This document shows positions 9,080 to 44,409 of a stretch of DNA of 64,000 nt, one piece after another. The position numbers were made by a program, and so were the translations under genes. Origin of the DNA: an uncultured Altererythrobacter sp. (GTDB lineage Bacteria; Pseudomonadota; Alphaproteobacteria; Sphingomonadales; Sphingomonadaceae); NCBI GenBank assembly GCA_913056125.1, contig CAJXNC010000008.1:1-64000 (forward strand). The letters run 5' to 3'. The notes below the pieces were generated by a model that did no database searches, was not told the DNA's origin, and saw only the letters and a list, made by a program, of their open reading frames with translations. Numbering within the stretch: position 1 is the first letter of the stretch; each line of letters begins with the position of its first letter.

Positions 9080-9176
9080 GAACTTGGTACTCGCTTATCT
9101 TTATTCACCCGCCACATGAGCGGAACCTGACGGTGAAGCTATCGCAGTTGCGAAGCAGGGGCAAGCAAAGCCATGT

Positions 9177-9980
9177 TCAGCCTTCGGAACGACTGCCCTC
9201 GACCGTGAAGGGCGCTGCGAGCGCCGGGGCGAGTTCGACATCGCGTTCGGCCAGCGGATCGTCCACGCCGATGGTGATGTCCTCCTGAACCACATCGTCG
9301 CGGAACGTCCCGTGGACATGGTCCCACAGGCTGATGCCGCTCGACCAGTTGCTGTCCATTTCGGACAGGTCCTGGCTGTGATGGATGCCGTGCATTTTCG
9401 GCGTGGTGATGAGCAGCGAGAGCCGCTCGTCCCAATTGCCGGGCAGGCGCCAGTTCGCGTGGTGGAACAGCACGGACAGGGTGAAAAAGCCCTGCCACGC
9501 CTTGAGCGCGTCCGGCCCGATCCCGCTCACGCGCACCTGCACCAGTCGCCAAGGTAGCGAGACGAGCATGTCGAGGAAGTGGAAGCGCAAGGCAGTAGAG
9601 GAATCCATGTCCGGATCGATGTGGTGCACCCGGTGAAAGCGCCACAGTAAGGGCACTTTGTGCGTGGCCACGTGCCAGAGGTAGAAACCGTAATCCATGG
9701 CTAGGAAGGCGGCGACCCTGCCGAGAATTCCTCCGCCGAGCGTACCGCGAAGTCCGCGCCCCCTTGCCACATTGCGCCGGGCGACCGCCTGCGTCAGAGG
9801 GGCCTCGCTCGCCATGATCACCGCCTGGCAGGAGGCACCCATGGCCAGGTTGCGGGCAATGCGCGGTGCGGCCTCGCGCGTCTGCTTGCGCAGCGGCTTG
9901 GCGCGTTCGGAAACAAGGATTACCCCCACTGCGGCCACGCCGACGGCCAAACCGGCCAGTTTGAGGAATCGCGATGCCAT
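9177..9980 (-). CDS. Sterol desaturase / fatty acid hydroxylase family protein
   Basis: A 267-residue membrane protein of the fatty acid hydroxylase superfamily. The di-iron histidine clusters are visible: HVATH (residue ~104), HRVHH (~117), HHANW (~175) and HGIHHSQ (~198). An N-terminal hydrophobic helix (residues ~6-24) is present. Family members hydroxylate or desaturate lipids, carotenoids or sterols using O2 and electrons from a reductase. The ATG at 9980 gives a conventional start. It is divergent from the TIGR04282 gene (54 bp between starts) and downstream of no obvious partner. The lipid substrate is not inferable from the neighbourhood. Confidence 0.87.
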   Translation of the reverse strand: MASRFLKLAGLAVGVAAVGVILVSERAKPLRKQTREAAPRIARNLAMGASCQAVIMASEAPLTQAVARRNVARGRGLRGTLGGGILGRVAAFLAMDYGFYLWHVATHKVPLLWRFHRVHHIDPDMDSSTALRFHFLDMLVSLPWRLVQVRVSGIGPDALKAWQGFFTLSVLFHHANWRLPGNWDERLSLLITTPKMHGIHHSQDLSEMDSNWSSGISLWDHVHGTFRDDVVQEDITIGVDDPLAERDVELAPALAAPFTVEGSRSEG

Positions 9981-29431: not shown

Positions 29432-32400
29432 ATGAGCGAGGGAAAATGGCATTTCTGGATCGACCGTGGCGGCACCTTCACCGATGTTGTCGCGCGCCGA
29501 CCCGACGGGCGAGTCGAGACCGCCAAGCTGCTCTCCGAAAACCCTGCACATTATGACGATGCCGCCGTCGCCGCGATCCGTCGCCTGACCGGCATTGCCG
29601 AGGGGAAGCTGCCCCCTTCCGACATCCGTATCGGCACCACGGTGGCGACCAATGCTCTGCTCGAGCGTAAAGGGGAGCCGGTGCTGCTGGCGATCACCGA
29701 GGGCTTCGGCGATGCGCTGGCGATCGGTACGCAGGAGCGCCCCGATATTTTCGCGCGCGAGATCGTGAAACCCGAGCCGCTGCCAGCCGAAGTGCTTGAA
29801 ATTGCGGAACGTATCGGTGCGGATGGCAAGGTCCACCTGGCGCTTGACGAAGATGCTGGGCGCGCAGGAATGCAGGCGGCCTTCGAACGAGGCTTTCGTG
29901 CCATTGCGGTGGTGTTGATGCATGGCTGGCAATATCCGGAGCATGAGGCAAGGCTGGCCGAAATCGCGAAGGAAGTGGGCTTTTCCGAGATCGCCGTGAG
30001 CCACCGCGTGAGCCCGCTTGCGCGGCTGATCGGGCGCGCCGACACGACCTGTGTCGATGCCTTTCTCTCGCCTGTCCTGGCCCGCTATGTCGAGGGGCTC
30101 TTGGCGGCATTGGGGGAAGGGCAGGCGCCGCTCTTCATGCAGAGCAATGGCGGGCTGGTCGGTGCCGAACATTTGCGCGGCAAGGATGCGATCCTCTCCG
30201 GACCGGCGGGCGGGATTGTCGGCATGGCTGAGACATCGAGGCGCGCCGGTTTCGATCGCGCGATCGGCTTCGATATGGGCGGGACATCGACAGATGTATC
30301 CCTGTTTGCAGGTACTTACGAGCACAGTAGCGATAATCGCGTGGCCGGCGTGCGGGTGCGTGCGCCGATGATGCAGATCCACACCGTGGCCGCCGGCGGA
30401 GGCTCGATTTGCCGTTTCGACGGGGCGCGCTTCATGGTCGGGCCGGAAAGCGCGGGCGCGCAGCCAGGCCCTGCCTGCTACCGCCAGGGCGGGCCTTTGA
30501 CGGTGACCGATTGCAACCTCATCCTCGGCAAGTTGCAGCCCGACCATTTCCCCGCTGTCTTCGGTCCGAATGCGGATCAACCGCTCGATGCAGAAGCGGC
30601 ACTGAAACGCATGGAAGAGGTGCTGAGCGGCGTTGAACGCGCCACAGCCGAGGCCATGAGCCCGCACACGGCCGCCGAAGGCTTCATCGCCATTGCGGTC
30701 GCCAATATGGCCAATGCGATCCGCGCGGTTTCGGTCGCCAAGGGTCACGACGTGGCCCGTTTCGCGCTCAACTGCTTTGGCGGGGCGGGCGGGCAACATG
30801 CCTGCCTCGTCGCCGATGCGCTTGGCATCGAAACCGTGCTGGTCCATCCGTTGTCCGGCGTGCTTTCGGCCTATGGCATGGGTCTCGCCGACATCCGCGA
30901 AATGCGCGAGGCAAGCTGCGGCCTGCCGATAGCTGCGAGCGAGGATCTGGCTGCCGTCGAGACCGGGCTGGTGGAGGAAGCGCGGGTCGCTTTGCTTGAG
31001 CAGGGCATTGCCGGCGATCGGATCGAAATCGGCGCAGAGGCGCATATCCGACCCGCCAATGGCGACAGCACGATTGCCGTGAAGCTGGCATCGCCCGAGG
31101 ACATGTCGCGTGACTTCGCGGAAGGATTCCGCACCCGTTTCGGCTATGCGCCCGAAGGCGAGCTGGTGGTGGACAGCATCCGCGTCGAGGCTGTTGCACC
31201 GACCGAGCATGGCGGCGATCCCGATTTTGCCGCGACTTCATCAGTCGCTCCGGAAGCCGAAGCCGAATGCTTCATGGATGGCGAATTGCGGACTTGCCGC
31301 GTGATCGAGCGTGCCGCTCTGGTCGAAGGCGATAGGATTGCCGGACCCGCCCTGATCATCGACCCGGTGGCGACCCTCGTCGTAGAACCTGGCTGGAGCG
31401 CGAGCATGGGCGAGGGCAGCATGCTGGTCCTGACCCGCTCCGAACAGCGCGCCACGGAAAGCGTCTCGACCGAGGTCGACCCGGTGCGCCTCGAAATCTT
31501 TGGCGGTCTGTTCATGGCCATTGCCGAGGAGATGGGCGGCGCGCTCCAGCATTCGGCGCGCTCGGTGAACATAAGAGAACGCCTCGATTTCTCCTGCGCG
31601 ATCTTCGACGCAAACGGCAACCTCGTCGCCAATGCGCCGCATATGCCCGTCCATCTCGGTTCCATGGGAGACAGTGTGCGTGCGGTGATCGAGCGGCATG
31701 GCAAGACCATGCGTGAAGGCGATGCTTTTGCGCTCAACGCGCCCTATCGCGGCGGTACGCATTTGCCCGATATTACCGTTGTTCGCCCGGTATTTACTGC
31801 AGGCAGCGAAGCTCCGGCATTCTACACCGCAGCGCGCGGACACCATGCCGATATCGGCGGCATTGCGCCTGGCTCCATGCCGTCCTCCAGCCGCTCGATC
31901 GAGGAAGAGGGCGTGGTGCTCGACTGCGTGCCTTTGGTCGCTGGCGGCAAGTTTCTTGCCGACGATTTGCGCACCCTGCTTTCATCGGGCCCTTGCCCTG
32001 CGCGCAATGTGGAGCAGAACCTGGCCGACCTTGCCGCGCAGGTGGCGGCCTGCCAGCGCGGCGCCACGCGGCTGTTGGAAATGACGGCAACCTATGGCGA
32101 GGATGTTGTCTCCGCCTATATGCGGCACCTGCTCGATTATGCAGAAGGCGCGGCGCGCAAGCTGCTGGGCGAATTGTCAGACGGATCACAGACGGTGCTG
32201 TTCGATGACGGGACGCAGATCGCCGTTGCCGTTTCCATAGAACGCGCAAAGGGCGAGGCGCTGGTCGACTTCACCGGCACCAGTCCGCAGAGGAGCGATA
32301 ATTTCAACGCGCCGTCGAGTGTGGTGCGCGCCTCCGTGCTCTATGCCATTCGCCTGCTCGCCGACCTGCCCGTGCCGCTTAATGACGGCTTCCTGCGCCC

Positions 32401-33007
32401 GGTGACGATCCGCATCCCCGAAGGCTCCATGCTCAGCCCCGAATATCCTGCCGCCGTGGTCGCGGGCAATGTCGAGACCAGCCAGATGGTCACCGATGCG
32501 CTGATGGGAGCCTTCGGCGCGATGGCTGCCAGCCAGGGCACGATGAACAATTTCACCTTCGGCGACGAGGCCCGGCAGTATTATGAGACTATCGCGGGCG
32601 GTGCCGGGGCAGGGCCGGGCTTCGATGGCGCTTCTGCAGTGCAGACCCACATGACCAATTCGCGCCTGAGCGACCCCGAAATCCTCGAACAGCGTTTCCC
32701 CGTCTTGCTCGAGAAATTCGCTATCCGCCGGAATTCAGGCGGCGAGGGCAAATGGCGCGGAGGCGACGGTACGGTGCGGAGTTTCCGCTTCCTCGAAGCG
32801 ATGCAGGTCAACATCCTCTCCGGCAGGCGCAAGGTTTCGCCATTCGGCCTTGCCGGCGGCGAGGACGGCATGTGCGGGGCGAATCTTGTCATCCATCCGG
32901 GCAAGAGCGGCGAATTGCTGCCGGGCACCTGTTCGATCGATGTGGAGGCAGGCGATGTGTTCGAAATCCACACCCCCGGTGGTGGCGGGTATGGCCGCTC
33001 CTCCTAG
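29432..33007 (+). CDS. Fused hydantoinase/5-oxoprolinase (HyuA-HyuB) family protein
   Basis: A 1191-residue fusion. The N-terminal HyuA half (residues 1-690) has WIDRGGTFTDVVARR, GTTVATNALLERKG and GFDMGGTSTDVSL (ASKHA-type ATPase). The C-terminal HyuB half (~690-1191) has HSARSVNIRERLDFSCAIFD, PVHLGSMGDSVRAV and RGHHADIGGIAPGSMP, and ends GGGGYGRSS. Family members are ATP-dependent 5-oxoprolinase, N-methylhydantoinase and related ring-opening enzymes, or acetone carboxylase-like proteins. Length and domain order match OplaH. Substrate is uncertain; an amidohydrolase downstream would fit hydantoin chemistry. It is divergent from the iron-sulfur subunit gene and overlaps the following convergent gene by 4 bp. 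Confidence 0.9.
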   Translation: MSEGKWHFWIDRGGTFTDVVARRPDGRVETAKLLSENPAHYDDAAVAAIRRLTGIAEGKLPPSDIRIGTTVATNALLERKGEPVLLAITEGFGDALAIGTQERPDIFAREIVKPEPLPAEVLEIAERIGADGKVHLALDEDAGRAGMQAAFERGFRAIAVVLMHGWQYPEHEARLAEIAKEVGFSEIAVSHRVSPLARLIGRADTTCVDAFLSPVLARYVEGLLAALGEGQAPLFMQSNGGLVGAEHLRGKDAILSGPAGGIVGMAETSRRAGFDRAIGFDMGGTSTDVSLFAGTYEHSSDNRVAGVRVRAPMMQIHTVAAGGGSICRFDGARFMVGPESAGAQPGPACYRQGGPLTVTDCNLILGKLQPDHFPAVFGPNADQPLDAEAALKRMEEVLSGVERATAEAMSPHTAAEGFIAIAVANMANAIRAVSVAKGHDVARFALNCFGGAGGQHACLVADALGIETVLVHPLSGVLSAYGMGLADIREMREASCGLPIAASEDLAAVETGLVEEARVALLEQGIAGDRIEIGAEAHIRPANGDSTIAVKLASPEDMSRDFAEGFRTRFGYAPEGELVVDSIRVEAVAPTEHGGDPDFAATSSVAPEAEAECFMDGELRTCRVIERAALVEGDRIAGPALIIDPVATLVVEPGWSASMGEGSMLVLTRSEQRATESVSTEVDPVRLEIFGGLFMAIAEEMGGALQHSARSVNIRERLDFSCAIFDANGNLVANAPHMPVHLGSMGDSVRAVIERHGKTMREGDAFALNAPYRGGTHLPDITVVRPVFTAGSEAPAFYTAARGHHADIGGIAPGSMPSSSRSIEEEGVVLDCVPLVAGGKFLADDLRTLLSSGPCPARNVEQNLADLAAQVAACQRGATRLLEMTATYGEDVVSAYMRHLLDYAEGAARKLLGELSDGSQTVLFDDGTQIAVAVSIERAKGEALVDFTGTSPQRSDNFNAPSSVVRASVLYAIRLLADLPVPLNDGFLRPVTIRIPEGSMLSPEYPAAVVAGNVETSQMVTDALMGAFGAMAASQGTMNNFTFGDEARQYYETIAGGAGAGPGFDGASAVQTHMTNSRLSDPEILEQRFPVLLEKFAIRRNSGGEGKWRGGDGTVRSFRFLEAMQVNILSGRRKVSPFGLAGGEDGMCGANLVIHPGKSGELLPGTCSIDVEAGDVFEIHTPGGGGYGRSS

Positions 33008-34291: not shown

Positions 34292-35572
34292 GTGAAAACA
34301 ATAGCGGGAGTGAACGTGGCCAAAGTCAATATCGGCAGGATCGAAGAGGAAATTCTCGCTTTGGCGCGTTTCGGGCTGCAGGAAGGTGGTCGCGGCGTCT
34401 ATCGCCAGGGCTTCAGCAAGGCCGACATGGCTGCCCGGAAATGGCTGGAAGACAGGTTCGCCGATCTCGGCATGTCGCATCGCATGGATGGCGCGGGCAA
34501 TGTCATCGGGCGCTACGGGCCGGACGACAAGCCGGCGATTCTTATCGGCTCGCATGTCGATTCCGTCCCGGCCGGCGGGATTTTCGACGGTGTGCTGGGC
34601 GTAATTGCGGGCCTGGAAGTGGTCCGTAGCCTGCAGGATGCAGGGATCGAACCGGACTATCCGATCGAGGTCATCGGCACGTCGGAGGAAGAGGGGCGTT
34701 TTGGCGGCATGCTGGGGGCGCAGGCCATGACCGGGCACCTGACGCGCGACTGGCTGGAAACCGCGGCCGACGAACATGGCTATGCCTTGAAGGATGCAAT
34801 GGCGGAAGCAGGGCTCAATGCGCTCGACGCCCTGCATGCGTTCAGGCGTCCCGAAGAGATCAGGGCCTTCCTCGAACTGCATGTCGAGCAGGGGCCGGTA
34901 CTTGATACCGAAAAGACCACGATCGGTATCGTGGAAGGCATATCGGGTGTGTTCAAATGGAATTGCCGCCTGATCGGCAAGGCTGACCATGCCGGAACTG
35001 CGCCGATGGACATGCGCAGCGATGCCTTCATGGGGATCGCCGACTTCGCGCACGAGATCCAGCGGATCATCGACGAGGAAGGGACCGACAAGAGTCGCAT
35101 CACCATCGGCCATGTCGCGCTCAAGCCGGGTTTTCCGCACACCGTGCCGGGAGAGGCGGATTTCACCATCGTCGGTCGCGATCTCGACGAGGGGGTCATG
35201 CACGGCCTCGCCAATGCCTGCCGCCGCGTGCTTTCCTCCATCGCTCGCAAGCACAAGCTCAAATTCGAATATGAGGAGATGAGCTGGCTCAAGCCCGCCT
35301 ATTGCGATGAAGGCATCGTCTCGCTGATCGAGAAGAAGACCAAGGAGCTGGGCTATAGCTACAAGGTCATGCCTTCGGGCGCCGGCCATGACGTGCAGTT
35401 CTTCTGCGGCCATACGCGCGCCGGCCTGATCTTCGTGCCCAGCGTCAACGGTGTGAGCCATGCGCCCGACGAATGGACGCATTGGTCCGATATCGAGCGG
35501 GGCGCGCAGCTGCTGCTCGAAACGGTACTTGAACTGGCCGTCGAAAAGGTGCCGAGCGAGGCGGCCGAATAG
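34292..35572 (+). CDS. Zn-dependent N-carbamoyl-amino acid / allantoate amidohydrolase (M20)
   Basis: A 426-residue M20-family amidase of the HyuC/AllC/beta-ureidopropionase group. Metal ligands are visible in GSHVDSVPAGGIFDG (residues ~89-103), GTSEEEGRFGG (~130) and ELHVEQGPVL (~194); a later His is in PSGAGHDVQFF (~360). These enzymes hydrolyse N-carbamoyl amino acids or allantoate, releasing CO2 and ammonia or a ureido product. The start GTG 34292 is assumed; a GTG at 34310 is also possible. A hydantoinase-type gene 1.3 kb upstream makes hydantoin or N-carbamoyl substrates reasonable (inference). Confidence 0.85.
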   Translation: MKTIAGVNVAKVNIGRIEEEILALARFGLQEGGRGVYRQGFSKADMAARKWLEDRFADLGMSHRMDGAGNVIGRYGPDDKPAILIGSHVDSVPAGGIFDGVLGVIAGLEVVRSLQDAGIEPDYPIEVIGTSEEEGRFGGMLGAQAMTGHLTRDWLETAADEHGYALKDAMAEAGLNALDALHAFRRPEEIRAFLELHVEQGPVLDTEKTTIGIVEGISGVFKWNCRLIGKADHAGTAPMDMRSDAFMGIADFAHEIQRIIDEEGTDKSRITIGHVALKPGFPHTVPGEADFTIVGRDLDEGVMHGLANACRRVLSSIARKHKLKFEYEEMSWLKPAYCDEGIVSLIEKKTKELGYSYKVMPSGAGHDVQFFCGHTRAGLIFVPSVNGVSHAPDEWTHWSDIERGAQLLLETVLELAVEKVPSEAAE

Positions 35573-35585
35573 ACAGGAGAGCGGC

Positions 35586-36359
35586 CTAGGCGCCGCGCGA
35601 GGCAATCCATTCTGGCAGCGCGGCAAGCGAATCCAACACGGCCGTCGGCGGCGGATCGATGCGCGTCTCGTCTCCTGCGGCGAACTTGCCCGTCCGCACC
35701 AGGATTCCATCGAGTCCTGCTGCCATGGCGCCACCGACATCGTTCTCGACATCGTCGCCCACCATCACCGCTTCAGCTGCCGGGCATCCGGCACTTTCGA
35801 GCGCCGCCTGGAAAAAGGCGAAGGAGGGCTTGCCCAGCACTACCGGCTCGCAGCCGCTGGCAAAGGACAGGGCGGTTACGAAAGGCCCGGCATCAAGGCT
35901 CAATTCGCCATCCCCGTCGCGGAAGGACTTGTTGTTGGCGAGGGCGAGGAAGCGCGCGCCCTTTTCGAGCGTGCGAAAAGCGGCGTTCATCGCTTCGTAG
36001 GTGAAGCCTTCACCCGCATCGCCGACCACCAGCGCTGGGGCTCCATCCTCGGGCAATCCGGCAAAGTCCTCGGCAAGGTCCGGGTGGATCAGCAAATGGG
36101 CGCCGAGGCCTTCTTCCTGCAGGATCCGCCTAGCGCCCGAGGCCGGAGTGAACAGCTCCTCTGCTTCGACCGGCACGCCCATCGCCTGCAGTTTTTCGAG
36201 CAGGACACGCCGCGGCGTGCGGGTGGTATTGGTGAGGAAACGGATCGCGATGCCTGCGTCGCGCAATGCCTCGATCGCGGCGATGGCGCCGGGAAGCGCC
36301 TCGTCGCCGACATAGACGACGCCGCCAAGGTCAAGAAGGACTGCGCGATACCTGGTCAT
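35586..36359 (-). CDS. HAD-IIA phosphatase (LHPP/TIGR01458-like)
   Basis: A 257-residue HAD-superfamily phosphatase. Motif I reads LLDLGGVVYVGDEALPG (residue ~8), which keeps the nucleophile Asp but has Gly in place of the usual acid/base Asp, as in LHPP-type proteins. Motif II is FLTNTTRTPR (~40) and motif III/IV is VMVGDDVENDVGGAMAAGL (~195). Such enzymes act on small phosphates (phosphoglycolate, nucleotide or pyrophosphate types). It lies 71 bp downstream of the asparagine synthase on the same strand, so it may be the last member of the transporter/carbamoyltransferase operon. Confidence 0.8.
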   Translation of the reverse strand: MTRYRAVLLDLGGVVYVGDEALPGAIAAIEALRDAGIAIRFLTNTTRTPRRVLLEKLQAMGVPVEAEELFTPASGARRILQEEGLGAHLLIHPDLAEDFAGLPEDGAPALVVGDAGEGFTYEAMNAAFRTLEKGARFLALANNKSFRDGDGELSLDAGPFVTALSFASGCEPVVLGKPSFAFFQAALESAGCPAAEAVMVGDDVENDVGGAMAAGLDGILVRTGKFAAGDETRIDPPPTAVLDSLAALPEWIASRGA

Positions 36360-36430
36360 CCGCTCTCACTGCTGGAATGGATGCGAGCGCCGAGTCTATC
36401 CTATTTTTGTGCACTGCGCCATCGGGCGCT

Positions 36431-38374
36431 TCAGGCAATCAGTTCGTCGATCGCATGCAGCGCGATGGCATGGTTGAGGATGATGTCCTTGCGCGTGTTC
36501 TGCGCATGGTCGTCGCTCTTGCGATAATCCTCGATCGATTGGCGCAGCTTCGCCTCGTCGAAAATGCCGTGTTCGGCGATTTCTTCGGATGACAGCCACT
36601 TGTCGATCAGCTTGTTGATCTCGGCTGTCTTCGCCGCGTCCGTATGCGCAGGCGGGGCCATGAAGGCGAACTTCTCGCGCTTGTAGAGCACTTCCGGCAA
36701 GACATGCTTCATCGCCTCGCGCACGACCCATTTCTCGATCCCGTCACGGATGCGCACATGCGGCGGGATACGCATGGCCAGCTCTGCCACATGGTGATCG
36801 AGGAATGCCGGGCGGCTCTCCAGGCTGTTGGCCATGTCTACCCGGTCCCCGCCCCAATTGAGGATCTGGCCTTCGAGCATGGTCTTGATCCAGCTGTACT
36901 GGACCTTGTCGAGCACGTGGCGTCCGTCGAGCATCGACCGGTCGAGCGAATAGGCGATAGCCGCAATCGGGTCGTAGTCGCCGAGCCTTTCCTTGAATTC
37001 GTCGCTGAGCAGCGGTTTCACGCGTTCGAGCACCAGCATCCAGGGCTGGATCCAGCTGGGCGTGAAGCCCATCACTTCCTCGAAGGCGGGGTGGCTGATC
37101 TGCTGTTCGGCCAAAACCGAACCGGCAAAGATCTTGTTACGCTCCTTCATCTCGTCGCCGGCAGACGTCTCGGAGTATGCTGGGTCGTGCAGGAAATAGT
37201 CGGCCTTGAACTGGGCATAGCCGCCGAACAGCTCGTCCGATCCTTCGCCGGTAATGACCACCTTATAGCCGACATCGCGCACATGCTTGCTCATCAGCAT
37301 CTTGGCGACCCCGAGCGTGTTGTAGAATGTGCGTTCGGAATAGAAGACCGCGTCCTCGAAATTCTTGCCGTAGAGATCGACGGCCTTGAGCTTGAGGATG
37401 TCCTGGTCGGCACCCGCCTTCTCCGCCATTTCGGTGGCGATATGCGCCTCGTCATAGCGATCGTCGTCGAAGCTGATGGTGAAGGCCTTGACCGGCGATT
37501 GCTGGATCGCGGCAGCCATGCCGATGATCGAACAGCTGTCGATCCCGCCTGAAAGATAGCAAGCGACGGGCACGTCCGCCTCGAGACGCAGCGCCACGCT
37601 TTCGACCAGCGCCTGGCGGACATTCTCGATATGCTCCTCGTCCGGCAAATCGTCATGTTCGCCATCGAGCGGGAATTCCGCATCCCAATAGCGCTGCTCT
37701 TCCAGTTCGAAGCCGTCAGCCGTCTTCTGCACCACCAGCATATGGCCGGGTTTCAGCGCATGGATACCTTCGAACAAGGTCATGCCCGGCACCATTACCT
37801 GCATCATCTGGTGCAGCTGGGCTTTGGGGCAGACGTCGCGCGGCACGTCCGGGTGGGCGAGCATGGCCTTCATCTCGCTGCCCCAGAAGAAGCCTTTGTC
37901 GCTGACATGGTAGAAGAGCGGGCGGATGCCGAAGCGGTCGCGCACCAGGATCATGCGCTGCTTCTTCTCGTCGAAGATGACGAAGGCGAATTCGCCGCGC
38001 AAATGCTCCATGAAATCGAAGCCGTGCTTGTGGAACAGCTTGAGCGCGATCTCGCTGTCGGACTTGGTATTGAAGGAATATCCGTCCGTCCGCAGAATCC
38101 CGCGCAGCTGCTTGTAGCCGTAGAACTCGCCATTGACGGTCATCACGAAACCGTCCGTGCCGTCATCCTCGCGCCCGAAGATCGGCTGGTCGCCGGCATT
38201 CAGGCCGATGATCGAAAGGCGTGTGTGGACCATGCACAGCCCATTGTCCGGATCGACATGGCTTCCCCAGCCATCGGGGCCGCGGTGATACATCCGGTCC
38301 GCCATCGCCTCCACGATCCGGTCCGCATCCTCGCGATGGTTGTTGGGGCTCCAGACCCCGGCAATTCCGCACAT
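36431..38374 (-). CDS. asnB: Glutamine-hydrolysing asparagine synthase
   Basis: A 647-residue class B asparagine synthase. Cys2 begins the N-terminal glutaminase domain (MCGIAGVW), with HRGPDGWG and RLSIIGLNAGDQP (residues ~28-60). The synthase domain has the ATP-pyrophosphatase PP-loop CYLSGGIDSCS (~270) and TGEGSDELFGGY (~372). It amidates aspartate or a related carboxylate using glutamine and ATP. Normal AsnB is around 550-650 residues, so the length is usual. In this operon it follows an altered carbamoyltransferase by 41 bp, so its acceptor may not be free aspartate (inference). Confidence 0.88.
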   Translation of the reverse strand: MCGIAGVWSPNNHREDADRIVEAMADRMYHRGPDGWGSHVDPDNGLCMVHTRLSIIGLNAGDQPIFGREDDGTDGFVMTVNGEFYGYKQLRGILRTDGYSFNTKSDSEIALKLFHKHGFDFMEHLRGEFAFVIFDEKKQRMILVRDRFGIRPLFYHVSDKGFFWGSEMKAMLAHPDVPRDVCPKAQLHQMMQVMVPGMTLFEGIHALKPGHMLVVQKTADGFELEEQRYWDAEFPLDGEHDDLPDEEHIENVRQALVESVALRLEADVPVACYLSGGIDSCSIIGMAAAIQQSPVKAFTISFDDDRYDEAHIATEMAEKAGADQDILKLKAVDLYGKNFEDAVFYSERTFYNTLGVAKMLMSKHVRDVGYKVVITGEGSDELFGGYAQFKADYFLHDPAYSETSAGDEMKERNKIFAGSVLAEQQISHPAFEEVMGFTPSWIQPWMLVLERVKPLLSDEFKERLGDYDPIAAIAYSLDRSMLDGRHVLDKVQYSWIKTMLEGQILNWGGDRVDMANSLESRPAFLDHHVAELAMRIPPHVRIRDGIEKWVVREAMKHVLPEVLYKREKFAFMAPPAHTDAAKTAEINKLIDKWLSSEEIAEHGIFDEAKLRQSIEDYRKSDDHAQNTRKDIILNHAIALHAIDELIA

Positions 38375-38415
38375 GTGTTTTCGTATTCCTGTGACATGCC
38401 CCGGTGGGGCGCAGT

Positions 38416-39507
38416 TCAGATCAGAAGATTGTCGGGCACCGAGTTGCGCACCCTGTCGAAGATCGCCAGCAGCAGCGCCTGACGTAGCCAGACGGCACCG
38501 TCTGCCTGGTTGAAATAGAGATTGTGCTGCGTGTTATCGAGATCGGTGGAAAGCTCCTCGCCGCGCGCCAGGGGGTGCAAGATCACCGTATCGTGCTTCA
38601 GCTTGCTTTCGGCGTTGAGCTGAAAGTCCTCGGAATAGAATCGATAGCCGTCGCCCAGGAATGCGATCGCATTCATGTAGATCACGTCGAGATATTCGAG
38701 GCTGCCCTGCAAATCGCGGCTGAAGTTGATACCGATCGGGCTGGCATCGCAGATATCGCGCAAATCGTCTCCCAGCGGGTCCGCCATCTCGGAGAAGATG
38801 GTGATGTGGTTGATGTTCTCATGGAACAACAGGGCGAGCTTGAGGAAGCTCTTGACCGTCCTCATGTTCCCCGGCGTGCCGATGATGCCGATATTGAGGC
38901 GGAACTTGTCGGGGATTGAACCGAAAGCAATTTCCGGGCGCCACTTCAGCAGGGCATACCAGTCTGCCAGGGCCTGGGTCGGATGTTCGTCCGACCCGTT
39001 GCCGCCATTGATCAGCGGAATGCGCAGATATTCCGATAGCTCGGCGATGGCGCGCTGCTCGGTATGGCGGACCACCACGACATCGGCATAGGAATTGAAC
39101 ATCTGCCCGATGTCGCGCAGGGATTCGCCCTTGGCCACGCCGGTGGTCTTGGCATCGGCCACGCTGATCGTGTTGCCACCGACGCTCAGCATGGCGCTTT
39201 CGAAACTGAGCCGCGTACGCGTGCTCGGCTCAAAGAAGGCCGCCGCCATGATCTTGTCTTCCAGCGCACGGCGCACCGGGTATTTGCGCAGCTGGAGATA
39301 GGCCGAGAGCTTGATCAGCTCGCACAACAAGTCCTTGTCGAACTGAGCGGCGGATACGACCGAGGAATTGCGCAAGCGGTCGAGCACATCCATTCGCAGG
39401 CGCGGCTCATATTGCAGCACGCCTTCGGGGTTAGGGCAGTTGCCGATCTGGCCACGACGGCGCTTTTCCGGGATTTCGTCCGCGACTTTCGCGGCGGGAA
39501 TGGTCAC
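38416..39507 (-). CDS. Non-canonical aspartate/ornithine carbamoyltransferase family protein
   Basis: A 363-residue carbamoyltransferase-fold protein. The carbamoyl-phosphate site is intact: STRTRLSFE (residue ~95) and EHPTQALADWY (~178) with the loop Lys in AKGESLRD (~127). In true aspartate carbamoyltransferases the aspartate is held by a R-x-Q-x-E-R motif in the 240s loop. Here the corresponding stretch is VIYMNAIAFLGDGYR, which lacks the R and Q. The C-terminal HPLARGEELS region is ATCase-like. I infer a carbamoyltransferase for another amine. The GTG start at 39507 overlaps the micro-protein stop by 4 bp (GTGA). N-terminal ~40 residues are an extension. Confidence 0.83.
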   Translation of the reverse strand: MTIPAAKVADEIPEKRRRGQIGNCPNPEGVLQYEPRLRMDVLDRLRNSSVVSAAQFDKDLLCELIKLSAYLQLRKYPVRRALEDKIMAAAFFEPSTRTRLSFESAMLSVGGNTISVADAKTTGVAKGESLRDIGQMFNSYADVVVVRHTEQRAIAELSEYLRIPLINGGNGSDEHPTQALADWYALLKWRPEIAFGSIPDKFRLNIGIIGTPGNMRTVKSFLKLALLFHENINHITIFSEMADPLGDDLRDICDASPIGINFSRDLQGSLEYLDVIYMNAIAFLGDGYRFYSEDFQLNAESKLKHDTVILHPLARGEELSTDLDNTQHNLYFNQADGAVWLRQALLLAIFDRVRNSVPDNLLI

Positions 39508-39626
39508 CAGCTCTCTCCGCGGAGCAGGTCACGGACCAGCATGAAAGCCAGCCCGGCAGCGGAAATCGCGCACCATACCAGCGAGACATAGACGAGGATT
39601 GTCAGAAATCCGGACGAGAAATTCAT
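39504..39626 (-). CDS. 40-residue micro-membrane protein of the symporter operon
   Basis: A 40-residue frame from ATG 39626 to TGA 39504. It contains one membrane helix (TILVYVSLVWCAISAAGLAF, residues ~9-28) with a short basic/acidic tail ending RGESW. Its start overlaps the symporter stop (ATGA), and its stop overlaps the carbamoyltransferase start (GTGA), which is strong evidence that it is translated. Small helical partners occur with other SSS transporters (for example YhdT with PanF, YjcH with ActP), so it may be an accessory subunit of the symporter (inference). I do not recognise a named family. Confidence 0.7.
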   Translation of the reverse strand: MNFSSGFLTILVYVSLVWCAISAAGLAFMLVRDLLRGESW

Positions 39627-41047
39627 GCGTCCTCCTTCAGGAGGTTCCAGTCATAGCGGTCCTTGGAGAGCCAGGCAGCGCCCAGCACCCAGACCATCGA
39701 GACGGCAGTTCCGATCGTGCTCGCGACGAACCAGCCAATGGTGAAATAGCTGATCAGCCCAATGCCGCCGCCAAGCAGCATCCCCCCAATCGCACCCACG
39801 CTGTTTGCGCGTCTCCAGTAGAGACCGGTGACGATCGGCCAGATCATAGCACCAACCAGCGGTCCTGCAAAAAACAGCACCGAAGCGAGCGTTCCGATGC
39901 GCGGGACGCAGACCGCCCAGGTGCCGATTCCGAGCGCCAGCGTGATATATTGCGCCACACTCTTGAGCCGTTCGGGCGTGGCCGCGGGTTTGAGGAAGCG
40001 GCGGTAGACATCTTCGACCAGCAGGTCGCTCGTGGCGGCCAGCAGGCTGTCGATGGAGGATGCCAGCGAACAGAAGACGATGATGAAGATCGCCACCGCA
40101 CCGACTTCGCCCAGCACGCTGGCGATCACCAGCGGACCAACCATGTCGGGGCTCGGCACGGCGACATTGAGCGCACCCGATGCCAGCGCGATGAAGCCCG
40201 CAGCGATGGGAATGGGGAACCAGACAAGTCCGCCGATCAGAAAGGCCTTGCTGCCCACGCCCTCGCGGAAAGCGAAAGCGCGGCTCCACCAGACATTGTT
40301 GTGGAACACCTCGCCGAGGCCGAAGAGGAGATTGTTGAAGATCGCCATCAGCGCCGCCGGGAACAGCACATGCACCAGTTCCGGCTTGCTGGCGGTCAGG
40401 TTTGCGTGGATCTCGTCGACCGAAACATTCTGCAACACGGCAAAGCCGACCACCACGATGCCGACAATGATGATCAGCGTCTGGATGAAGTCGGTCCCGA
40501 TGACCGCCGTCAAACCGCCGCGCATGGTGTAGATCACGCAGACGGCGAGGATCACCGTCATGCCCCAGACATAGTCGATGCCTGCCAAGGCCTCGAGCAA
40601 AATGCCGCCCGCCATGGCCATGCTGACCAGCCATGTCAGCGAGTAGAAGAGGGTGAAGAGCATGAAGATGCCCCAGGCCACGCGGCCATAGCGCAGGCGG
40701 AAGAAATCGCCGCTGGTATAGCCGTGCGGCATGAGCGTGCGGATGCGCTTGGCCAGGGGCGCGAAGAGGATCAGCCCGAAGGCTGCCATCGAATAGGCGA
40801 GCATGCCCCAGATACCGAGCTCAAGCGCGAATTGCGGCGCCAGCATGGTGGTGTTGGACGTGATCCACGTTGCCGCGGCCGTGGCCGAACCGAGCGCCAG
40901 GCCGACATTGCGCCCGGCCAGCGCATGGTCCTCGAAACTCTTGTTCTTCTTGCCCCAGTAGATACCGAGGCCGATCCAAAGTGCGCTGAACAGCGCCAGC
41001 AGGAGGTATCCGGTCGAGGGAGCGAGCAGGACGTTGCTATCAGTCAT
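39623..41047 (-). CDS. Sodium:solute symporter (SSS family)
   Basis: A 474-residue transporter with about thirteen predicted helices. SSS-family features include YLLLALFSALWIGLGIYWGKK at the start, DHALAGRNVGLALGSATAAATWITSNTT near residues 40-70, RLRYGRVAWGIFML (~118) and SSIDSLLAATSDLLVEDVYRR near residue 330 (the conserved Na2-site region). Substrate assignment is not possible from motifs; the sequence has a DUR3/urea-like look. ATG 41047 overlaps the FnIII-like gene stop by 8 bp. The stop overlaps the micro-protein start, so transporter, peptide and carbamoyltransferase are chained. Confidence 0.87.
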   Translation of the reverse strand: MTDSNVLLAPSTGYLLLALFSALWIGLGIYWGKKNKSFEDHALAGRNVGLALGSATAAATWITSNTTMLAPQFALELGIWGMLAYSMAAFGLILFAPLAKRIRTLMPHGYTSGDFFRLRYGRVAWGIFMLFTLFYSLTWLVSMAMAGGILLEALAGIDYVWGMTVILAVCVIYTMRGGLTAVIGTDFIQTLIIIVGIVVVGFAVLQNVSVDEIHANLTASKPELVHVLFPAALMAIFNNLLFGLGEVFHNNVWWSRAFAFREGVGSKAFLIGGLVWFPIPIAAGFIALASGALNVAVPSPDMVGPLVIASVLGEVGAVAIFIIVFCSLASSIDSLLAATSDLLVEDVYRRFLKPAATPERLKSVAQYITLALGIGTWAVCVPRIGTLASVLFFAGPLVGAMIWPIVTGLYWRRANSVGAIGGMLLGGGIGLISYFTIGWFVASTIGTAVSMVWVLGAAWLSKDRYDWNLLKEDA

Positions 41048-41414
41048 CGCGTGCTCCCCTCACAATCGTCGCGATAATCCCCGCAGTGATGATGAGACCG
41101 ATCAGCGTCAGCCACAGCGCCTGCGCCAAGGACTGGTGCGCCACTGTCAGTATGGCCGGTTCCGAGACCTCGCCATTCTCGCCTTCGAGGTGCAGGCGAT
41201 ACTCGCCATCGGAAAGGCCCGAGAGGAAATAGGATGTCTGCGTGCCGCTATAGAGCGTCCTCGCATCGGACATGTCCGGGTCTTGCGCGATGGACAGCGT
41301 GACCCGCTGGTCTGCTTCCCAACTCAGCAGGACATGGCCCGTATCGCTGGAATATTCCCCGCCATTGGTAAATGACGGGGCCTCCGCATGCGCTGCACCG
41401 GGCAGAATCGACAA
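41040..41414 (-). CDS. FnIII-like domain single-pass membrane protein, start uncertain
   Basis: The visible protein runs SILPGAAHAEAPSF..., then a ~75-residue fibronectin-type-III-like beta domain (VLLSWEADQRVTLSIAQDPDMS, SYFLSGLSDGEYRLHLEGENG), and a C-terminal helix (LAQALWLTLIGLIITAGIIATIV) with a short basic end. It looks like a periplasmic domain anchored by the C-terminal helix. The annotated TTG at 41414 cuts into what reads as a signal peptide (IHHFIHAGLAALFLSILPGAAHA). The frame stays open upstream to a stop near 41538 but offers no ATG or GTG, so the start may be CTG, TTG or a sequence error. First gene of the symporter operon; role unknown. Confidence 0.65.
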   Translation of the reverse strand: MSILPGAAHAEAPSFTNGGEYSSDTGHVLLSWEADQRVTLSIAQDPDMSDARTLYSGTQTSYFLSGLSDGEYRLHLEGENGEVSEPAILTVAHQSLAQALWLTLIGLIITAGIIATIVRGARDD

Positions 41415-41742
41415 GAACAGGGCTGCCAGCCCTGCATGGATGAAGTGGTGGATGCGGCCCGGTCGTGGGCCGAAGTTACCGCTGAAATAGGAGATTGGTC
41501 CTTGCCCGTCCTGCCGGCCGACCTGCCGGTGCTCTTGCTAATCCTGTCTGAGTTGAGAAGCCCTATCAAAGCTGGCAATCATTGTGAACCGAGGAGAGCC
41601 GGACGCCTGTGGCTTTGTTCGGGCATCGACTTGGCCGGGCCCTCATTACCTACGAACGGTCCGGATCTGGCAGCCCCTCGGTTTGGGCATCCTTTCGATC
41701 CAAGGCACTTTGCCGTGATGAAGAGTGGCCAAGTGCCATCGG
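41415..41742. promoter_or_regulatory. Region upstream of the symporter operon with a candidate promoter
   Basis: This 328-bp stretch between the G8-protein stop and the FnIII-like gene has no gene of its own; its 3' part codes in frame for the signal-like sequence noted there. On the minus strand TTGATA (41569-41564) is followed after 17 bases by CAGGAT (41546-41541), a fair match to a -35/-10 pair, giving a start near 41534. Confidence 0.35.
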
Positions 41743-44409
41743 TCAGCCGCCGAGGCCCTCCCTGCTGACCGTAATACTGGCCTGCAGGTCGGTTGGCCGG
41801 ATGACCTCCATGACCGGAGCATCGGCCACCAGCTTGACCCAGACGCTATCGCCATCCCTGAACCAGGAGGTCTCGTTCGCAGCGCGCAGCGCGTCCATGC
41901 TGTCCGCTTGCGTTCCGGACTCTGCGTTGGTGAAGCCGGGCAGTTCGAACATCACCCATGAGCCTTCGTCCAATTCGCTCACACTCAAGGTGACTTCCGG
42001 CCTTTCGGTTTTCACCTCGATTTCGGTTCCGGCCCGTACGGTGCTCTGGTCGCCATTGACCTTGAATTCGCGGCCATTGCGAATGAGCGCGATGGGCGCC
42101 TGCGGAGGACGGCGGGAGAACAGCGCGGCACGCTGGGACTGCACGAGGGGCGTGTCCGGTGCGCTAGGGCTGAGCGAGGAGAGCAGGGCAAACCGGGCGG
42201 TGCGCGATTCCAGATCGACAGCGGCGGGAAGTTCGCCCCTGGCATCCGAGAGGTTCAGGCGTCCGATATCGCCGGTACACACGGCAGCGTTCCAGCTGGG
42301 ATGAACCTCGCAGCTGTCGTCACTGGCGACGCTGTCATTCTCGCCATCGTGGAGCAGGATCTGGGAATTGGGGATCCCGGTCACCGATCCGTCAATGTCG
42401 TGGATCGACAGGGTTCGATAGGCATTGCCGCCACGGTTATCATTGTCGAACCTTGCATCGTATGGCGGGAAATAGACCGGCTTGGCGTTGACGAATTCGG
42501 CCCCGCTGATCGTGCTGTTGGTGCTAAGTCCAGCGCTGGTGAAAAGCAGGAAGGACAACGCCCCTGTCTTGCGCTGGTCATTGTCCTGGAAATTCACGAA
42601 AGTCGTGTTCACCACATCGTCGCGGTAATCGTAATACTCGTAGCCGCGGATCGGGAAGTCGGGGATCAGCACCTTGGGCAGGCTGCGGCCATAGGCGATC
42701 TCTTCCCGCGTCGTGGGATTGCCGATATTGTCGGTTTCACCCACGACCAGCGAGTCCACCAGGCGTGAACTGAAGGGCAGGCTGCCAATATCGCCCGCGG
42801 CCTGCGTCATGCCGATGGCGTTGTCGGCGAATTTCGCATTGCTGTAGACATACATGTCCCCCCGGCCCCACAGACCGCCATTGCGGTTCTTGTAGGCGGT
42901 CAGGTCCTCGAAATGTATTTCGCGGACTTCGCTCTCCAGGTCGGTGGGGTCGGCCAGTGCCAGCAACGGGATGGAGGCCAGCCCGAATGTGTTGTCCTCC
43001 TCTATGTGACGGTCGATCAGGAAGCCGTCGTAATTGGAGTGCGCCGTGTTGCCGCGGAATTCGCGCACAGGCGTGCGGCGCGGCCAGGTGTTGGCGCTGA
43101 TCTCCGTTCCCAGGAAAGCGCCATTGGGGTGCTGCGGAATGGAGAACCAGAATCCGGTCGAGTCCGATCCTGCCGCCACATTGTCTATGTAGCTATTGTC
43201 CGGATTTGTGATCCAGTAGGACGCCACCGTATTGTCCGAAGGCAGCAGCGTATTGCCCCCGTGGAAGCTCGCTTCGCGGTAGGCCGCAGCATCCTCTTGC
43301 CTGGCTACCCTCTCCGCGTTCGCGCCAAGATCGGTCGGCACGCAATCCAGCGTCGGGTGGCACTTGGTCTGGATCGCCAGGTTGCGGATGAACTCGTTAC
43401 CCGTCTCGATCCCGTCTTCCATGAAGAAGCAGTGACCCACCGTGTTGTAGGTCACATTGTTCTCGATACGCAGGTCATTCGTGCCGTGCACCGTCACGCA
43501 GCGATTGAACGCGTCGTGGATAGAGGCGTTCTTGACGTACATGCCCGCGCCATCGCCGAGCAGGTGAAAATGCATCGGGTAGCGGGCAAGCACGAGGTGC
43601 TGGCCCATGCGGTTGAACTCGACTCCGTCGACATAGGCCTCGGAGCCACCCATCGCCATGATGTGGCCGCCGAAATAGCTGGTCGCCGCATCCTCGGAAG
43701 CCTGGATCAGGATGTTGCGCGTGAGGTTCGCAACCTCGCCGCGCTCATCCACGCCGAAAGTGATCTCGCCGAAATGCATATATTGCAGCGGTTCAGTGAA
43801 AGAGACGGTGTTGCCGCTGATCGATGTGATCTTGCGGCGCTCTGCCTGGCGCGGGTTGAAGTCGGTGGAGGCAAGGACGATCTCGTCACCCACATTCCAG
43901 CCCGTGGCATCGAGCAGTTGGATGCTGGTGGCGCCGCGCTCTGCGGTGGCGGCGAGTTTGCTCCATGCGTGTTCACGCGTGCCATGCAGGTTGAGCGTGC
44001 CCTGCATCAGCATGATGCCGCGATCGCCCATCGTATTGATGTCTTCGCCGGTTATATTGTCCGTAAGGGTAATGGTGGCCCTGTGCGTGTGCGGATTATC
44101 CGCCGTGCCAATGGTCAGCGAACCTCCCGGCACGTAGATCCACTCGGTAGAGAGGTTGAGGTCACGCTCGTCGGAGAATGTCAGACTGCCCTGGATAGTC
44201 AGGCTGCGCAGGCCCGGTGCGTCGACATCGAGCACCACATCCATGTCGCGCGTGATCTCCACTGCATCGCCCGCGGCAGGCACCTGACCGCTCGGCCATG
44301 TGGATGCATCGGACCAGAGCGACTGGGCGTTTGCGGCAGAACCAATACCCGCCAACGAAACGACAGGCATAAATAATGCGGCTTTGATCAAGCGAGACTG
44401 CAAGTTCAC
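41743..44409 (-). CDS. Secreted G8-domain / parallel beta-helix protein (CEMIP/TMEM2-like)
   Basis: An 888-residue secreted protein. A signal peptide (residues 1-29, ending ANAQ) is followed by a G8 domain (LWSDASTWPSGQVPAAGDAVEITRD, GLRSLTIQGSLTF), then a long right-handed parallel beta-helix with repeats such as FHLLGDGAGMYVKNASIHDAFNRCVTVHGT. A C-terminal beta-rich domain completes it. G8 proteins in animals (CEMIP, TMEM2, fibrocystin-L) bind and cleave hyaluronan; bacterial relatives are mostly uncharacterised. The start is a GTG at 44409 with an AGGGG site upstream. It lies upstream of the symporter operon on the same strand but is separated by 328 bp. Cargo may be an acidic polysaccharide (inference). 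Confidence 0.82.
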   Translation of the reverse strand: MNLQSRLIKAALFMPVVSLAGIGSAANAQSLWSDASTWPSGQVPAAGDAVEITRDMDVVLDVDAPGLRSLTIQGSLTFSDERDLNLSTEWIYVPGGSLTIGTADNPHTHRATITLTDNITGEDINTMGDRGIMLMQGTLNLHGTREHAWSKLAATAERGATSIQLLDATGWNVGDEIVLASTDFNPRQAERRKITSISGNTVSFTEPLQYMHFGEITFGVDERGEVANLTRNILIQASEDAATSYFGGHIMAMGGSEAYVDGVEFNRMGQHLVLARYPMHFHLLGDGAGMYVKNASIHDAFNRCVTVHGTNDLRIENNVTYNTVGHCFFMEDGIETGNEFIRNLAIQTKCHPTLDCVPTDLGANAERVARQEDAAAYREASFHGGNTLLPSDNTVASYWITNPDNSYIDNVAAGSDSTGFWFSIPQHPNGAFLGTEISANTWPRRTPVREFRGNTAHSNYDGFLIDRHIEEDNTFGLASIPLLALADPTDLESEVREIHFEDLTAYKNRNGGLWGRGDMYVYSNAKFADNAIGMTQAAGDIGSLPFSSRLVDSLVVGETDNIGNPTTREEIAYGRSLPKVLIPDFPIRGYEYYDYRDDVVNTTFVNFQDNDQRKTGALSFLLFTSAGLSTNSTISGAEFVNAKPVYFPPYDARFDNDNRGGNAYRTLSIHDIDGSVTGIPNSQILLHDGENDSVASDDSCEVHPSWNAAVCTGDIGRLNLSDARGELPAAVDLESRTARFALLSSLSPSAPDTPLVQSQRAALFSRRPPQAPIALIRNGREFKVNGDQSTVRAGTEIEVKTERPEVTLSVSELDEGSWVMFELPGFTNAESGTQADSMDALRAANETSWFRDGDSVWVKLVADAPVMEVIRPTDLQASITVSREGLGG

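What the first reader, a model, noticed from the sequence alone, without database searches (positions are those of the whole stretch)
35586..41450. Candidate undescribed system: symporter-micropeptide-carbamoyltransferase-AsnB operon
Five to six genes on one strand are chained by 4-8 bp overlaps (FnIII-like/symporter, symporter/40-residue peptide, peptide/carbamoyltransferase) and short gaps to AsnB and a HAD phosphatase. The carbamoyltransferase keeps STRTR and HPTQ (carbamoyl-phosphate site) but has YMNAIAFLGDGYR in place of the R-x-Q aspartate-binding loop. Coupled import, carbamoylation and amidation of an imported amine or amino acid is a possible pathway.
Basis: partly seen in the sequence, partly recalled or inferred. 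Interest (0 to 1): 0.72.

Follow-up and report, generated by a model that had tools for sequence, protein, structure and literature searches.

The report
Gene set for a salt-protecting solute
This operon pairs an altered carbamoyltransferase with an amide-forming enzyme and probably makes a nitrogen-rich salt-protecting molecule, carbamoyl-glutamine amide, for which I found no published genes; if so, a molecule reported from one bacterium may be made by many others.

Summary
The operon is real and conserved. The order Fn3-like / SSS symporter / 40-aa peptide / carbamoyltransferase (CT) / AsnB is kept in 34 of 37 loci, including Nitrosomonas marina and a Scalindua MAG; the HAD gene is not part of it (2 of 37). 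The CT is not the pyrimidine enzyme: 84 of 84 relatives keep the carbamoyl-phosphate residues and the K84 and R167 equivalents but lose R229 and Q231, and the genome has two further family members. A sister branch (44-50% identity) sits in MarR - M20 carbamoylase - isochorismatase-like amidase - CT - AsnB operons; its CT is in 41 of 47 genomes of one family. That family contains Ectothiorhodospira sp. BSL-9 and Thioalkalivibrio HL-EbGr7 (exact genome lengths) and a genome matching E. [quoted passage not shown] I propose that CT carbamoylates glutamine and AsnB amidates its alpha-carboxylate, giving CGA, with amidase and carbamoylase as the breakdown arm. This is inferred; no product was measured.

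The parts
41040..41414 (-). Fn3-like small protein (124 aa), first gene of the operon
   Evidence: ORF; hit upstream of the symporter in 35 of 37 loci; also upstream of M20 in many sister-branch loci
39623..41047 (-). SSS-family sodium/solute symporter, 474 aa (PF00474)
   Evidence: on the same strand upstream of CT in 36 of 37 loci
39504..39626 (-). 40-residue peptide with one hydrophobic stretch, probable small partner of the symporter (inference)
   Evidence: exactly 40 codons in 30 of 30 sequences read, purifying selection; no family hit
38416..39507 (-). ATCase-fold carbamoyltransferase (CT), 363 aa, with rebuilt acceptor loop; proposed glutamine N-alpha-carbamoyltransferase
38641..38679 (-). 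CT residues 277-289 YMNAIAFLGDGYR, replacing the R229-x-Q231 aspartate loop
36431..38374 (-). AsnB-family glutamine-dependent amidotransferase, 647 aa; proposed to amidate the alpha-carboxylate of N-carbamoyl-glutamine
   Evidence: TIGR01536 410 bits over cut-off 267; follows CT in 36 of 37 loci; in the sister family both occur in 40 of 47 genomes
34292..35572 (+). M20 N-carbamoyl-L-amino-acid amidohydrolase kind, proposed degradation step; convergent neighbour here, inside the operon in the sister branch
35586..36359 (-). HAD-IIA hydrolase; adjacent but not a conserved member
   Evidence: 2 of 37 loci

Best explanation
[quoted passage not shown] Step 1 (inferred): CT transfers the carbamoyl group of carbamoyl phosphate to the alpha-amino group of L-glutamine. 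Step 2 (inferred): AsnB, with ATP and a second glutamine, turns the alpha-carboxylate into an amide; the product has no net charge. Uptake (inferred): the SSS symporter with its 40-residue partner brings back lost or external solute using the sodium gradient. Breakdown (inferred): in the sister branch an isochorismatase-like amidase removes the 1-amide and the M20 carbamoylase then releases glutamine, CO2 and ammonia; in the window's branch only the M20 enzyme is nearby. A MarR-type regulator precedes the sister-branch operon. Shown here: gene order, residue changes, co-occurrence, genomic settings. Not shown: substrate, product, salt induction.
For: (1) A carbamoyltransferase and an AsnB always side by side predict a molecule that is N-carbamoylated and C-amidated; CGA is such a solute, known from E. 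marismortui (passages). (2) A genome matching E. marismortui carries the CT-AsnB operon: G387 has 2.6 Mb against 2,624,954 bp; 68.5, 67.8 and 66.6% GC in three stretches against 68.2%; its sister G438 (2.8 Mb) is 93.8 and 92.9% identical over two regions against a published ANI of 92.6 for E. mobilis; the same genus holds a contig of exactly 3,550,080 bp = Ectothiorhodospira sp. BSL-9. (3) G387 has three OTCace_N genes; if the other two are pyrB and argF, as expected but not tested, this CT is the one left to make CGA. (4) CT in all 10 genus genomes and 41 of 47 family genomes. In the class sample 26 of 369 match; 3 of these are family members (G171, G288, G387), 3 only distant copies and 1 a fragment. 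(5) CT keeps the carbamoyl-phosphate site, K84 and R167 and loses R229 and Q231 in 84 of 84: alpha-carboxylate anchor kept, side-chain carboxylate anchor lost (roles recalled), as an amino acid with an uncharged side chain would need. (6) The breakdown arm mirrors the synthesis arm: M20, whose nearest solved structure is an N-carbamoyl-L-amino acid hydrolase, with N-carbamyl-L-glutamate amidohydrolase ErtE its second-best NCBIfam model, below cut-off (369 against 520; 391 in the sister branch), plus an isochorismatase-fold amidase. (7) Osmotic setting: sucrose synthase in 6 of 22 and MscS-type channel genes in 4 of 22 sister-branch loci, by cluster with one representative annotated, among them T. 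sulfidiphilus HL-EbGr7, identified by its exact length of 3,464,554 bp.
Against: No substrate or product was tested. The window is in branch A and the E. marismortui operon in branch B (44-50% CT identity, separate clades), so the step to the window is by homology. The loop next to the NxIA core differs between branches (FLGDGYR against mostly WVGD). Branch-A loci lack the isochorismatase amidase (no hit in 36 loci and the window). The only NCBIfam model of its own level that the M20 enzyme passes besides TIGR01879 is a subfamily named allantoate amidohydrolase (504 against 399), a name that would point to purine breakdown. CGA is described as found in one organism only and as a minor solute, whereas all 10 genomes of the genus have the CT. 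In G477 the CT stands about 0.7 Mb from the AsnB. The T. versutus D301 salt transcriptome paper has no occurrence of 'asparagine' or 'carbamoyl' in its main text. G387 is identified by size, GC and identity to a sister, not by name. Only 8 of 37 branch-A record titles name a marine or saline source; salt habitat of the rest was not checked, and the gene is rare in the window's family (11 of 298).
Confidence: 0.62

Rival explanations
1. Same logic, different amino acid: CT and AsnB make another N-carbamoyl amino-acid amide (for example from asparagine), with glutamine used only in E. marismortui or not at all, and the two branches may differ in acceptor.
For: The acceptor pocket cannot be read from sequence; residues next to the NxIA core differ between branch A and branch B, and the 281-290 block of the model has low confidence (mean pLDDT 56).
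Against: The key loop columns (N, A or S, I, A, and HPLAR) are the same in both branches (84 of 84); CGA is the only solute of this build that my searches turned up.
Confidence: 0.2
2. A catabolic or nitrogen-salvage operon: the symporter imports N-carbamoyl compounds (or allantoate-like ureides), CT works in reverse to yield carbamoyl phosphate, and AsnB re-assimilates nitrogen.
For: A symporter and an M20 carbamoylase are linked; the M20 enzyme passes a subfamily model named allantoate amidohydrolase; catabolic carbamoyltransferases exist (recalled).
Against: AsnB costs ATP and makes amides; the M20 enzyme would already remove the carbamoyl group without CT; the symporter is absent from the operon in all 10 genomes of the Ectothiorhodospira genus; no carbamate kinase was among the ten recurrent-neighbour representatives that I annotated.
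Confidence: 0.1
3. An ordinary second aspartate carbamoyltransferase for pyrimidines with chance neighbours.
For: ATCase fold; the solved structures listed are ATCases or ATCase domains.
Against: Below the ATCase cut-offs (171.4 against 236.95; 172.3 against 263); R229 and Q231 lost in 84 of 84; two further family members in the same genome; linkage to AsnB kept across phyla.
Confidence: 0.03

Closest known systems
N-acetylglutaminylglutamine amide (NAGGN) pathway, AsnB-type amidotransferase TIGR03104
   Same: An N-capped, C-amidated glutamine solute; an AsnB-family enzyme puts the amide on (role recalled)
   Different: Cap is carbamoyl from a carbamoyltransferase instead of acetyl; no dipeptide step; AsnB scores 288 against the TIGR03104 cut-off of 570
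Aspartate carbamoyltransferase (PyrB)
   Different: Aspartate loop R229/Q231 replaced by NxIA, HPLPR is HPLAR, own operon
Ectoine and glycine-betaine synthesis and transport operons
   Same: Synthesis genes with an uptake system and, in the sister branch, a MarR-type regulator (comparison recalled)
   Different: Different chemistry; breakdown enzymes in the same operon in the sister branch
N-carbamoyl-amino-acid degradation (M20 carbamoylases, ErtE)
   Same: M20 enzyme over the TIGR01879 cut-off (343 against 204)
   Different: Linked to a carbamoyltransferase and an AsnB; a HyuAB-like gene was hit in 1 of 37 loci

Membership tests
Aspartate carbamoyltransferase (PyrB) | Carbamoyl-phosphate site S52-T53-R54-T55, R105, H134, Q137 | tested here: met
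   84 of 84 distinct sequences
Aspartate carbamoyltransferase (PyrB) | Aspartate side-chain loop R229 and Q231 (role recalled) | tested here: not met
   A or S, and A, in 84 of 84
Aspartate carbamoyltransferase (PyrB) | NCBIfam equivalog cut-offs TIGR00670 / NF002032 | tested here: not met
   171.4 against 236.95 and 172.3 against 263 bits
AsnB glutamine-dependent amidotransferase | TIGR01536 cut-off, Cys2 nucleophile, SGGxDS ATP motif | tested here: met
   410.2 against 267.1 bits; MCGIAG and SGGIDS in the translation
NAGGN amidotransferase | TIGR03104 cut-off | tested here: not met
   287.6 against 570.1 bits
N-carbamoyl-L-amino-acid amidohydrolase (M20) | TIGR01879 cut-off | tested here: met
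   343.2 against 204 bits; nearest solved structure 3n5f
N-carbamyl-L-glutamate amidohydrolase ErtE | NF058540 cut-off | tested here: not met
   369.1 against 520 bits
SSS sodium/solute symporter | PF00474 gathering score | tested here: met
   101.4 against 22.8 bits; the TIGR00813 cut-off is not reached, 137.7 against 184
CGA biosynthesis operon (proposed) | Presence in the known producer E. marismortui | tested here: inconclusive
   Operon present in G387, which matches E. marismortui by size, GC and identity to its sister; genus fixed by the exact BSL-9 length. No name is attached
CGA biosynthesis operon (proposed) | CT carbamoylates glutamine; AsnB amidates N-carbamoyl-glutamine | not testable with these tools
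   Needs enzyme assays
CGA biosynthesis operon (proposed) | Product accumulates and genes are induced with salt | not testable with these tools
   Needs NMR/MS and RNA-seq

The most novel reading that the evidence does not exclude
[quoted passage not shown] A solute reported from a single purple sulfur bacterium is in truth a widespread compatible solute of some sphingomonads and nitrifiers, an anammox MAG from Suakin Deep, a few cyanobacterial genomes and nearly the whole Ectothiorhodospira-Thioalkalivibrio family, made by a repurposed ATCase (glutamine carbamoyltransferase) and a new AsnB activity, with a symporter, its 40-residue partner and a built-in recycling arm.
Probability: 0.5. Interest if true: 0.85.

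Novelty: new variant of a known kind. Interest (0 to 1): 0.72.

Why it matters
If right, it gives genes and enzymes to a compatible solute whose structure was reported in 1991 (Galinski and Oren, as cited in PMC1224877), adds an acceptor to the ATCase superfamily, and predicts the solute in many bacteria from which it has not been reported. The solute is nitrogen-rich (four N) and could also act as a nitrogen store, which would suit ammonia oxidisers (inference). Each step of the prediction can be tested directly.

Tried and rejected
Pyrimidine ATCase: rejected. HAD phosphatase as part of the system: rejected, 2 of 37 loci. The HyuAB/caprolactamase-like gene (29432-33007 +): one weak hit (26%) in 37 loci, set aside. 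NAGGN operon: AsnB far below the TIGR03104 cut-off. Isochorismatase amidase in the window or in 36 branch-A loci: searched, none. A 40-aa peptide between symporter and CT in 26 further loci (25 sister-branch and L034), sought by its WC motif: 7 loci gave only strings that do not resemble the peptide, 19 none; weak tblastn hits in L082 and L094. Plasmid search with the sister-branch CT of L084: 34 records, all under 60% identity, most annotated as pyrB, some without annotation. Salt transcriptome of T. versutus: operon not mentioned in the passages and the one results section read. Paper searches for CGA genes or this operon; none found. Papers: passages only of PMC7824335, PMC1224877, PMC3857566, PMC10224512, PMC5818414, PMC5231179, PMC3072093, PMC3368412; PMC9062515 passages and one section; PMC8877833 abstract, section 3.1 and tables; Galinski and Oren 1991 not read.

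Left out of the residue count: two fragments (L156, L074) and seven sequences under 330 bits (L075-L078 distant copies, L048, L050, L165). One search printed 85, but it held the window's CT twice (as WIN and L001), so I give 84.
Full report
WHAT IS THERE. On the - strand of the window six genes follow one another: Fn3-like (41414-41040), SSS symporter (41047-39623), a 40-residue peptide (39626-39504), a carbamoyltransferase (CT, 39507-38416), an AsnB-family amidotransferase (38374-36431) and a HAD hydrolase (36359-35586). The first three junctions overlap by 8, 4 and 4 bases. Convergent to the HAD gene lies an M20 enzyme (34292-35572 +) over the TIGR01879 hydantoinase/carbamoylase cut-off (343 against 204 bits) and over that of a subfamily named allantoate amidohydrolase (504 against 399), and below that of ErtE (369 against 520); its nearest solved structure is 3n5f, an N-carbamoyl-L-amino acid hydrolase.

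CONSERVATION OF THE ORDER. A scan of the genome collection with the CT gave 37 loci. The order Fn3 - SSS - peptide - CT - AsnB on one strand is kept in 34 of 37; the exceptions are L007 (contig begins inside the symporter), L034 (no peptide hit) and L042 (a 25% match, CT only). SSS - CT - AsnB is kept in 36 of 37, M20 is in the locus in 29 of 37, HAD in 2 of 37. Hosts are Novosphingobium, Croceicoccus, Alteraurantiacibacter and relatives, Hirschia, Nitrosomonas aestuarii and N. marina, a Scalindua arabica MAG and an Oscillatoriales MAG; 8 of 37 record titles name a marine or saline source (mangrovi, marinum, pelagius, aquimarinum, aestuarii, marina twice, SuakinDeep). Frequency at E <= 1e-60, in samples drawn by the tool: 11 of 298 genomes of the window's family, 3 of 81 of the Nitrosomonas genus, 1 of 62 of the Scalindua MAG's order, 2 of 194 of the cyanobacterial MAG's phylum. 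So it is sparse, patchy and spread over several phyla; in the tree the Scalindua, cyanobacterial and Nitrosomonas copies of branch A group together, which fits horizontal transfer.

THE PEPTIDE. In 30 of 30 sequences read (of 36 with a hit, window included) it has exactly 40 codons, with FS at positions 3-4, WC at 18-19 and a last W; dN/dS was 0.04-0.33 in the 11 of 12 pairs where dS could be computed. It is a real gene, probably a small membrane partner of the symporter (inference). In 26 other loci no convincing peptide was found by motif.

THE SISTER BRANCH. A profile of the family (A1, 18 sequences) matched 26 of 369 Gammaproteobacteria at E <= 1e-60: G061 (branch A, 645 bits), 21 at 410-462 bits, one fragment (278) and three with only distant copies (207-230). 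Of 26 loci read, 22 hold a close CT (44-50% identity to the window's) and 4 (L099-L102) only a distant copy. Of the 22, AsnB follows CT in 21 (L098 ends at the CT), M20 is present in 21 (L059 is a 3.4-kb contig) and SSS in 18. Between M20 and SSS or CT sits an isochorismatase-fold amidase (PF00857; biuret and ureidoacrylate amidohydrolase models far below cut-off; N-carbamoylsarcosine amidohydrolase among its solved relatives), clustered in 20 of the 22 sister-branch loci chosen. In 18 loci (two of them repeats) the order is MarR - (Fn3) - M20 - amidase - (SSS) - CT - AsnB, with M20, amidase, CT and AsnB in 18 of 18, MarR in 17 and SSS in 5. Sucrose synthase lies by the operon in 6 of 22 loci, a PfkB kinase in 6 and an MscS-type channel gene in 4, by cluster with one representative annotated. 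In the tree branch A and branch B are each a clade (0.97 and 0.96); two distant copies also fall within the clade of both.

WHO CARRIES IT. Reaction-centre genes were found in 2 of 26 CT-bearing genomes. The family of one of them (G387) has the CT in 41 of 47 genomes and the AsnB in 41 of 47: both in 40, CT alone in G463, AsnB alone in G459, neither in 5. Its genus as grouped by the tool has 10 genomes, all with reaction-centre genes and CT. One, G441, has a contig of 3,550,080 bp, the exact length published for Ectothiorhodospira sp. BSL-9; there the CT is split between two frames, a sequencing error or a broken gene. G387 (2.6 Mb; 68.5, 67.8, 66.6% GC in three stretches) and G438 (2.8 Mb), 93.8 and 92.9% identical over two regions, match E. 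marismortui (2,624,954 bp, 68.2%) and E. mobilis (2,796,053 bp, ANI 92.6). G171 resembles Ectothiorhodosinus mongolicus (contig 1,995,095 bp against 1,990,961 bp; 55.2 and 57.2% GC against 55.6), though the paper keeps that species in its own genus. G474 is T. sulfidiphilus HL-EbGr7 by exact length, 3,464,554 bp.

WHY CGA. [quoted passage not shown] A carbamoyltransferase for an uncharged amino acid plus an AsnB amide-former predicts such a molecule. The genome that fits the producer has this operon and only two other OTCace_N genes. The breakdown genes mirror the synthesis genes, and the genomic setting is osmotic in part of the loci. PMC7824335 (passages) reports that Ets. mongolicus lacks genes for betaine and ectoine synthesis and names sucrose, CGA or NAGGN as candidates; G171 has this operon next to a sucrose synthase. 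PMC9062515 reports that high salt raises GlnA and nitrogen-uptake genes in T. versutus D301 but not the betaine genes; a glutamine-based solute would be one sink, but the operon is not mentioned there and I did not confirm that this strain carries it.

WHAT IS WEAK. No enzyme was tested. The window is in branch A and the producer in branch B. Branch-A loci lack the amidase. The M20 enzyme also fits an allantoate-named subfamily. One genome (G477) has CT and AsnB far apart. Salt habitat was not checked beyond names. Galinski and Oren 1991 was not read.

VERDICT. My searches of the open-access library found no genes assigned to CGA; subscription papers are not covered.

Noticed in passing
L156 (G441, Ectothiorhodospira sp. 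BSL-9), about 8669-9594: The CT is split between two reading frames while the neighbouring operon genes are hit in full; sequencing error or a broken gene.
   Followed up: no
L099 8239-9177 (second copy in G312), L100 3869-4906: Distant CT relatives in which the STRTR carbamoyl-phosphate motif itself is altered; no AsnB of this type beside them. Function unknown.
   Followed up: partly
window 29432-33007 +: Fused HyuA-HyuB protein (1191 aa), closest named NCBIfam models caprolactamase subunits, below cut-off; hit in one other locus only (L021, 26%).
   Followed up: partly
L172 8408-9493 (G477): A CT without AsnB, M20 or amidase beside it; the AsnB lies about 0.7 Mb away on the same contig.
   Followed up: partly
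L079 3513-12105 (G171): M20-amidase-CT-AsnB sits between a divergent sucrose synthase and an MscS channel gene with a PfkB kinase: looks like an osmolyte island.
   Followed up: yes
window 41743-44409 -: Large protein (888 aa) upstream of the operon on the same strand; among the 37 loci a relative was hit in L008 only. Its look of a G8/parallel-beta-helix surface protein is my reading, no call.
   Followed up: no
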